A program made the position numbers and the translations under genes. A DNA stretch of 64,000 nt from Rhodoferax sp. GTDB lineage: Bacteria; Pseudomonadota; Gammaproteobacteria; Burkholderiales; Burkholderiaceae_C. Below, piece after piece: positions 17,524-19,074 of the stretch (position 1 is its first letter; each line of letters opens with the position of its first letter). A model generated the notes under the pieces. That model was not told where the DNA came from and made no database searches. It saw only the letters and a list, made by a program, of their open reading frames with translations. Location: NCBI RefSeq assembly GCF_030646845.1, contig NZ_JAUSLE010000007.1, positions 62,001 to 126,000 on the forward strand. The letters are read 5' to 3'.

Positions 17524-17526
17524 GAT

Positions 17527-19074
17527 TTAGGCCAACTGCTTGGCTGCTTCAGTCTTGCCAACCCCCGTCGGGCCGCTGAACAGGAATGAGCCAATTGGCT
17601 TGTCACCCTTACCCAAACCGGAGCGCGCCATCTTCACGGCCGAGGCCAGCATGTCAATGGCCTTGTCCTGTCCGAACACCACGTTCTTGAGGTCCCGCTC
17701 CAGCGTCTTGAGCTTGCCGCGATCATCATTGGACACATTGGCGGGCGGAATGCGGGCGATCTTCGCCACGATTTCCTCCACCTCGGTCTTGCTGATGATC
17801 TTCTTGCGTTTGGACGGCGGCAGAATGCGTTGGGCGGCACCCGCTTCGTCGATCACGTCAATGGCCTTGTCTGGCAGATGACGGTCGTTGATGTACTTGG
17901 CGCTCAGCTCGGCCGCCGCCTGCAATGCAGCCACGGCGTACTTAACGTTGTGATGCTCTTCAAAACGGGACTTGAGGCCCTTGAGAATTTCCACGGTCTG
18001 CTCAACGGTGGGCTCGACCACATCGATCTTCTGGAAGCGGCGGGACAGCGCGGCGTCCTTCTCGAAGATGCCACGGTATTCGGTAAACGTGGTCGCCCCG
18101 ATGCATTTGAGCTGACCGGAGCTCAGACCAGGTTTGAGCAGATTAGACGCATCCAGCGTCCCGCCCGATGCCGCGCCGGCACCAATCAGGGTGTGAATTT
18201 CATCAATGAACAACACTGCATGGGGTTTGTCCTTGAGGGACTTCAGAACGCCTTTGAGACGCTGCTCGAAATCACCTCGGTATTTTGTACCCGCCAGCAA
18301 AGCGCCCATATCAAGCGAATACACGATGGAATCCGCCAGGATTTCAGGCACGTCCTTTTGCGTGATGCGCCACGCCAAGCCCTCGGCAATGGCAGTCTTG
18401 CCAACGCCAGCCTCACCAACCAGCAGCGGGTTGTTTTTGCGGCGGCGGCACAAGATCTGGATCACGCGCTCGACTTCGTATTCGCGCCCAATCAATGGAT
18501 CAATCTTGCCGTCTTTGGCGAGTTGATTCAGGTTGACAGTGTACTGCTCCAACGGCGAAGTTTTCTCGTTTTTCTCAGTCACCCCTTCTTCACTTTCGGC
18601 CTGACTCTCGCCCGATTTGGACGGCTCCGGCGGATCGCTTTTCTTGATGCCGTGGGCAATGAAGTTCACCACGTCCAGCCGGGTTACGCCTTGCTGGTGC
18701 AAGTAGTACACAGCGTGAGAATCTTTCTCGCCAAAAATCGCCACCAGCACGTTGGCCCCGGTGACTTCCTTCTTGCCGCTGCCAGTGGACTGCACATGCA
18801 TGATGGCACGCTGAATCACGCGCTGAAATCCCAAGGTAGGCTGGGTGTCCACATCGTCTGATCCAGCGACCTGTGGTGTGTTGTCCTTGATGAAGTTCGC
18901 CAGTGATTTGCGCAAGTCGTCAATATTGGCCGAACAGGCGCGCAGCACCTCGGCCGCGCTCGGGTTGTCGAGCAGCGCGAGAAGCAAGTGCTCCACTGTG
19001 ATGAACTCGTGACGCTGCTGACGCGCCTCGACAAACGCCATATGAAGGCTGACTTCCAATTCTTGGGCAATCAT
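17527..19074 (-). CDS. clpA: ClpA N-terminal fragment (N domain, D1, start of D2)
   Basis: 515 residues as read. Domains in order: ClpN repeat domain (about 1-145), linker rich in Glu/Ser/Lys, D1 AAA+ with Walker A GEAGVGKTAIAEGL and Walker B VLFIDEIHTL, then the start of D2 with Walker A GPTGVGKTEAAKQLA, where the protein ends. The fragment could still bind ClpS through its N domain but lacks most of D2 and the IGL-type loop for ClpP binding, so it would not be a functional ClpAP component. Confidence 0.6.
   Translation of the reverse strand: MIAQELEVSLHMAFVEARQQRHEFITVEHLLLALLDNPSAAEVLRACSANIDDLRKSLANFIKDNTPQVAGSDDVDTQPTLGFQRVIQRAIMHVQSTGSGKKEVTGANVLVAIFGEKDSHAVYYLHQQGVTRLDVVNFIAHGIKKSDPPEPSKSGESQAESEEGVTEKNEKTSPLEQYTVNLNQLAKDGKIDPLIGREYEVERVIQILCRRRKNNPLLVGEAGVGKTAIAEGLAWRITQKDVPEILADSIVYSLDMGALLAGTKYRGDFEQRLKGVLKSLKDKPHAVLFIDEIHTLIGAGAASGGTLDASNLLKPGLSSGQLKCIGATTFTEYRGIFEKDAALSRRFQKIDVVEPTVEQTVEILKGLKSRFEEHHNVKYAVAALQAAAELSAKYINDRHLPDKAIDVIDEAGAAQRILPPSKRKKIISKTEVEEIVAKIARIPPANVSNDDRGKLKTLERDLKNVVFGQDKAIDMLASAVKMARSGLGKGDKPIGSFLFSGPTGVGKTEAAKQLA

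What the first reader, a model, noticed from the sequence alone, without database searches (positions are those of the whole stretch)
17524..17532. clpA carries a single in-frame stop inside the second AAA+ module
The codons read GCC TAA ATC ATG on the minus strand; every codon before and after is in the same ClpA frame, and no indel is needed to join them. Related ClpA proteins read KQLA-(Tyr)-IMG here (from recall), so a one-base change from TAT or TAC explains it. The N fragment keeps D1 and Walker A of D2; the C fragment keeps Walker B and the Arg finger but lacks Walker A. The intact clpS next door loses its partner if the stop is real. Options are a true loss of ClpAP, read-through (TAA is the least leaky stop) or an assembly error.
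Basis: partly seen in the sequence, partly recalled or inferred. Interest (0 to 1): 0.7.

Follow-up and report, generated by a model that had tools for sequence, protein, structure and literature searches.

The report
clpA cut by one stop codon
In this Rhodoferax-like bacterium the gene for ClpA, the motor of a protein-degrading machine, carries a stop codon in its second motor domain that no checked relative has, so this machine is likely lost in the sequenced strain, unless the base is a sequencing error.

Summary
In detail: on the minus strand at 17529-17527 a TAA interrupts an otherwise clean 775-codon clpA at codon 516, leaving ORFs of 515 aa (N domain, D1, D2 Walker A) and 258 aa (rest of D2). 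Close relatives have tyrosine there (29 of 29 genus loci; 115 of 115 full-length proteins counted); of 85 genus genomes with a match only this one shows an internal stop. No second clpA was found in the assembly; clpS, clpP, a clpX-like gene and two N-degron transferase genes are open. Neither half shows relaxed selection, and among 86 coding-like ORFs compared with a relative no other stop lies inside a Pfam domain. So the stop is either a very recent loss-of-function mutation (my choice, about 0.6) or a base-calling or assembly error (about 0.3). Read-through is disfavoured: TAA stands at 24 of 84 compared ORF ends and no stop-reading tRNA was called. A start codon 3 nt after the stop makes a two-piece ClpA by reinitiation conceivable, but it lacks a Shine-Dalgarno-like stretch. 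This looks like an ordinary, isolated nonsense allele of a well-known gene; raw reads are needed to settle mutation versus error.

The parts
17527..17529 (-). in-frame TAA at clpA codon 516, 9 codons after the D2 Walker A lysine
   Evidence: sequence; one search reports 1 TAA inside the matched frame; K507 and Y516 in intact P0002
17527..19074 (-). N-terminal clpA ORF, 515 aa: Clp_N, D1 AAA, AAA_lid_9, start of D2 with Walker A
   Evidence: Pfam; NCBIfam TIGR02639 721.6 bits against cut-off 993.15
16747..17523 (-). C-terminal clpA ORF, 258 aa, ATG 3 nt after the stop: rest of D2 plus ClpB_D2-small
   Evidence: Pfam; TIGR02639 354.8 bits against cut-off 993.15
19155..19517 (-). clpS, intact 120 aa adaptor gene upstream
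   Evidence: PF02617 E 3.3e-33; NF000672 159 bits against cut-off 112

Best explanation
The only clpA gene found in this Rhodoferax-like genome carries one in-frame TAA at codon 516, which likely arose recently as a single-base nonsense mutation and would leave the strain without a working ClpAP protease. Shown: the stop, its absence from the relatives seen, no second clpA in the assembly, and open frames for clpS, clpP, a clpX-like gene and two N-degron transferase genes. Inferred: translation would end after the D2 Walker A; the 515-aa piece lacks most of D2 and the ClpP-docking region, so it could bind ClpS but would not feed ClpP; substrates delivered by ClpS would no longer be degraded by this route, while ClpXP would remain. 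Recency is inferred from the lack of further decay.
For: One clean stop, no indel. Tyr at this codon in 29 of 29 genus loci fetched and in 115 of 115 full-length proteins counted, 5 of the 120 listed being dropped for length or motif. In the genus survey 85 of 89 genomes have a ClpA match and only G000's row shows a stop; by the listed ranges 82 of the other 84 span codon 516. No second ClpA found: Clp_N occurs in clpA and in one 897-codon ClpB-like frame, and D2-small in these two and the clpX-like gene. Among 86 coding-like ORFs compared with G032, 9 held a stop: clpA, and 8 where it lies outside Pfam domains or in ORFs without Pfam hits; no frame change was flagged. So the assembly is not generally error-ridden there. 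dN/dS of pairs with G000 is like that of other pairs in both halves, so a real stop would be young.
Against: The pattern (one stop, no further decay, partner genes open, 49 of 50 good genus genomes with a ClpA match) is also what a single wrong base would give. I had no reads and no second strain of the species, and the genome has 6.54% estimated contamination in 88 contigs. The nearest genomes compared are about 88% identical in clpA DNA, so short-term decay cannot be resolved.
Confidence: 0.6

Rival explanations
1. The TAA is a base-calling or assembly error (or a minority variant taken into the consensus) and the organism has an ordinary intact clpA.
For: Gene otherwise clean and under strong purifying selection; relatives seen are intact; clpS, clpP, the clpX-like gene and the two transferase genes are open. 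Neither fragment of this genome shows among the best 120 hits of the two protein searches, which is weak evidence, as annotated pseudogenes are often not deposited as proteins.
Against: The site is deep inside a 249,772-base contig; no other stop inside a Pfam domain and no frame change flagged among 86 coding-like ORFs, so such errors are not common there.
Confidence: 0.3
2. ClpA is made in two pieces: ribosomes stop at TAA and some reinitiate at the ATG 3 nt downstream, and the pieces reassemble into a working D2 ring.
For: ATG 3 nt after the stop and open to the natural end. In three E. coli gene pairs a +2 nt distance lowered reinitiation by 5, 20 and 70% against the native overlap, so it can still occur (PMC10666635, passages). 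The C half shows no relaxed selection.
Against: No Shine-Dalgarno-like stretch before that ATG, whereas the N start has AAAAGGAA; removing the motif reduced reinitiation in 4 of 5 E. coli pairs (PMC6728339, passages). The same ATG is present in the 29 intact relatives. Database fragments starting at this Met (11 of 120) are no more than those at M482 (13 of 120). The cut lies within one ATPase fold.
Confidence: 0.05
3. The stop is read through (natural leakiness, suppressor tRNA or codon reassignment) and full-length ClpA is made.
For: Frame is open on both sides and the C half is conserved.
Against: No tRNA with anticodon TTA, CTA or TCA among 38 called from 40 Rfam matches; a partial match at a contig end and a weak match were not called. 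TAA stands at the homologous end of 24 of 84 compared ORFs, so it terminates genes here. No other stop inside a Pfam domain among the 86 coding-like ORFs.
Confidence: 0.04

Closest known systems
ClpA, ATP-binding subunit of ClpAP (TIGR02639, NF008263; E. coli ClpA 1ksf/1r6b)
   Same: The two pieces cover ClpA almost end to end; clpS lies directly upstream; about 97% identical to the intact ClpA of G058
   Different: Frame interrupted at codon 516; neither piece reaches the NCBIfam cut-off
Single-substitution nonsense pseudogene of a conserved gene
   Same: One stop, no indel, no further decay, partner genes open
   Different: Not confirmed by reads or by a second strain
ClpA65, the 65-kDa E. 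coli protein from an internal start in clpA (Seol et al. 1994, seen only in the reference list and strain table of PMC7707817)
   Same: A shorter ClpA chain from the same gene
   Different: It starts at an internal site near M169 and so should keep both ATPase modules (inferred, not read); here the cut is inside D2

Membership tests
ClpA (functional) | N-terminal Clp_N repeat domain | tested here: met
   PF02861 in the 515-aa piece, E 6.3e-15
ClpA (functional) | complete first AAA+ module (D1) | tested here: met
   PF00004 at 217-349 and PF17871 at 356-456
ClpA (functional) | complete second AAA+ module (D2) in the same chain | tested here: not met
   PF07724 split 1-24 / 33-165 between two ORFs
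ClpA (functional) | score over the curated ClpA cut-off | tested here: not met
   721.6 and 354.8 bits against 993.15 for TIGR02639
ClpA (functional) | ClpAP activity with ClpP and ClpS | not testable with these tools
   needs protein work
Nonsense pseudogene | stop absent from intact orthologues | tested here: met
   29 of 29 loci and 115 of 115 proteins counted read Tyr; no other stop in the genus survey
Nonsense pseudogene | stop truly present in the organism | not testable with these tools
   no reads available
Nonsense pseudogene | relaxed selection after loss | tested here: inconclusive
   dN/dS 0.008-0.026 for pairs with G000 against 0.003-0.034 for pairs among five relatives; these are too distant to see short-term decay

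The most novel reading that the evidence does not exclude
A natural two-chain ClpA: the TAA and the ATG 3 nt behind it form a stop-start junction, so one mRNA yields an N-D1-Walker A chain and a Walker B chain that reassemble into a split D2 ring and still drive ClpP.
Probability: 0.04. Interest if true: 0.6.

Novelty: new member of a known kind. Interest (0 to 1): 0.2.

Why it matters
If real, it is a natural clpA-null in a genus where clpA is otherwise kept (49 of 50 good genomes have a match), with the other genes of the N-degron route in place, and so a natural test of what ClpAP is for. E. coli lacking clpA is less susceptible to Agrobacterium type VI killing (PMC7012810, abstract and passages), so loss could even be selected in some settings; that link is speculative here. 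If an error, it is a reminder that a lone stop in a conserved gene needs reads.

Tried and rejected
1) Recurrent split at the same Met: several database ClpA fragments start exactly at the Met after the site (e.g. P0193, longest contig 17.4 kb). Tabulating the 120 listed fragments gave 11 at M518, 13 at M482 and 5 at M527, which fits ordinary start choice in broken or partial genes; I did not see their contigs. 2) Genome-wide stop recoding or a pseudogene-rich assembly: a first pass flagged 13 of 84 matched ORFs as holding a stop (listed). In the wider pass 9 of 86 coding-like ORFs held one: clpA; six with the stop outside the Pfam domains (over-extended starts or ends); two without a Pfam hit and overlapped by opposite-strand ORFs. 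Of the first 13, three fell under 65% identity (o22, o79, o92) and two failed the third-position test (o39, o108); these five were dropped without further study. 3) Suppressor tRNA: none called. 4) Structure prediction of intact P0002 with 10 sequences: mean pLDDT 45.4, pTM 0.25; its helix 506-518 fits expectation but the model is too poor to use. 5) Literature: the listings for ClpA with 'premature stop codon', clpA with pseudogene and clpS and Rhodoferax with ClpA showed no title about such an allele; only listings were read, plus passages of PMC10679819, which did not bear on it. (split AAA+, loosely matched) was too loose to tell anything. Searches found the reinitiation and ClpA papers cited.

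Full report
What is there. The minus strand reads GCC TAA ATC ATG at 17532-17521 in the clpA frame. The TAA at 17529-17527 ends a 515-aa ORF that starts at 19074; the next ORF starts at the ATG at 17523, 3 nt behind the stop, and runs 258 aa to 16747. Together they are a 775-codon clpA with no indel. NCBIfam lists ClpA families first for both pieces, but neither reaches the curated cut-off (721.6 and 354.8 bits against 993.15 for TIGR02639). Pfam puts Clp_N, the D1 AAA domain and its lid in the first piece and splits AAA_2 of D2 at profile positions 24/33. In intact P0002 the D2 Walker A lysine is K507 and the interrupted residue Y516, which aligns with Lys510 of E. coli ClpA (my count). So Tyr is usual in close relatives but not in all ClpA. 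The ClpP-docking IGL loop of E. coli (named in PMC7707817, passages, with E613 in it) aligns within the second piece.

Whose genome. The window is bases 62001-126000 of a 249,772-base contig in a 4.35-Mb assembly of 88 contigs, 99.85% complete and 6.54% contaminated by estimate. The best named relatives are Rhodoferax, a genus of the Comamonadaceae (recalled).

Relatives. The 29 other genus loci fetched (L005-L033) each carry a tyrosine codon at the site and an open clpA; itself found a match in 59 of 60 genomes. In the genus survey 85 of 89 genomes have a ClpA match and only G000's row shows a stop. By the listed ranges 82 of the 84 other matched genomes span codon 516; G043 and G026 do not, and G020, G057, G063 and G074 have no match. 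In the family survey 391 of 397 genomes have a match; the rows shown read 'none' except G000's, but that list is cut and I did not see the rest. A degenerate pattern for this stop in its context matched 1 of 399 order genomes, G000 itself; genomes with a different context could not match it. Among the 120 best proteins listed for the first piece, 115 are 770-785 aa and have the motif, and all 115 have Tyr; 5 were dropped for length or motif, one of which, the odd P0001, has Phe. The closest, P0002, differs at 8 of 774 compared residues. The 120 listed are 734-821 aa; none is near 515 aa.

Age and selection. Nei-Gojobori estimates give dN/dS of 0.009-0.025 (codons 1-515) and 0.008-0.026 (codons 517-762) for the five pairs with G000, against 0.003-0.022 and 0.012-0.034 for the ten pairs among five relatives. 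Changes private to G000 against nine relatives are 3 nonsynonymous and 12 synonymous before the stop, 0 and 3 after it; the stop itself is not among them because the relatives use two Tyr codons there. G058, for comparison, has 3 and 5 before, 3 and 3 after. Residues rare (<5%) among 99 relatives of 775 aa number 4 in G000, the stop included; 31 of the 99 relatives have as many or more. So there is no sign of decay. As the nearest genomes compared have about 88% DNA identity, this only says that the stop is young or not real.

Surroundings. Clp_N is otherwise found only in one 897-codon ClpB-like frame. The one ClpP match and a clpX-like gene lie just beyond the window, 206 and 421 aa, open. 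clpS is intact. Leu_Phe_trans and ATE_C, families of the N-degron transferases (roles recalled), each have one open match on the same contig. Thus the route that ends in ClpAP is present except for an intact ClpA.

Is the assembly error-prone? 302 ORFs from 340 kb of G032 were compared with 343 kb of G000. 106 matched over at least 60% of length at 65% identity or more, and 86 of these had third-position bias. Nine of the 86 held a stop; six of them have it outside Pfam domains, two have no Pfam hit, and clpA is the ninth. No frame change was flagged. This lowers, but does not remove, the chance of an error at one base.

Read-through. TAA stands at the homologous end of 24 of 84 compared ORFs (39 TGA, 12 TAG, 9 sense; not filtered by the third-position test). 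ARAGORN called 38 tRNAs from 40 Rfam matches and none reads a stop codon.

Two-piece reading. The ATG 3 nt downstream lies at a distance where native E. coli pairs still reinitiate; +2 nt cost 5, 20 and 70% in three pairs (PMC10666635, passages). But there is no Shine-Dalgarno-like stretch before it, and removing the motif reduced reinitiation in 4 of 5 E. coli pairs (PMC6728339, passages). Database fragments that begin at this Met fit ordinary start choice. I keep it as the boldest reading at 4%.

Verdict. An isolated in-frame stop in the only clpA found: most likely a recent loss-of-function mutation (0.6), next a sequence error (0.3). It is an ordinary kind of event in a well-known gene, worth one look at the reads.

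Noticed in passing
window 61887-62361, minus strand: tRNA cluster Gly(gcc)-Gly(gcc)-Cys(gca)-Leu(taa); an ORF match flagged falls on it and is spurious.
   Followed up: no
clpA codons 285 and 321 (N piece): His and Gln where 95 and 98 of 99 relatives of 775 aa have Asn and Ala; within the usual spread of rare residues.
   Followed up: partly
P0001 (734 aa, database protein): A ClpA-like protein whose D2 runs into repeated D1-like segments; looks like an assembly chimera.
   Followed up: no
L037, Polaromonas sp. P2-4: clpA open frame of only 691 aa where the other intact ones have about 777-826; possible break in its N-terminal part.
   Followed up: no
G074 (96% complete, 430 contigs): No ClpA match at E 1e-100 in the genus survey; loss or assembly gap.
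   Followed up: no
G122, G222, G233, G423, G472, G476: Six of 397 family genomes (90% or more complete) without a ClpA match at E 1e-100; not examined.
   Followed up: no
window 21157-21552: Alanine/lysine-rich ORF of 131 aa with several overlapping low-complexity ORFs on both strands.
   Followed up: no
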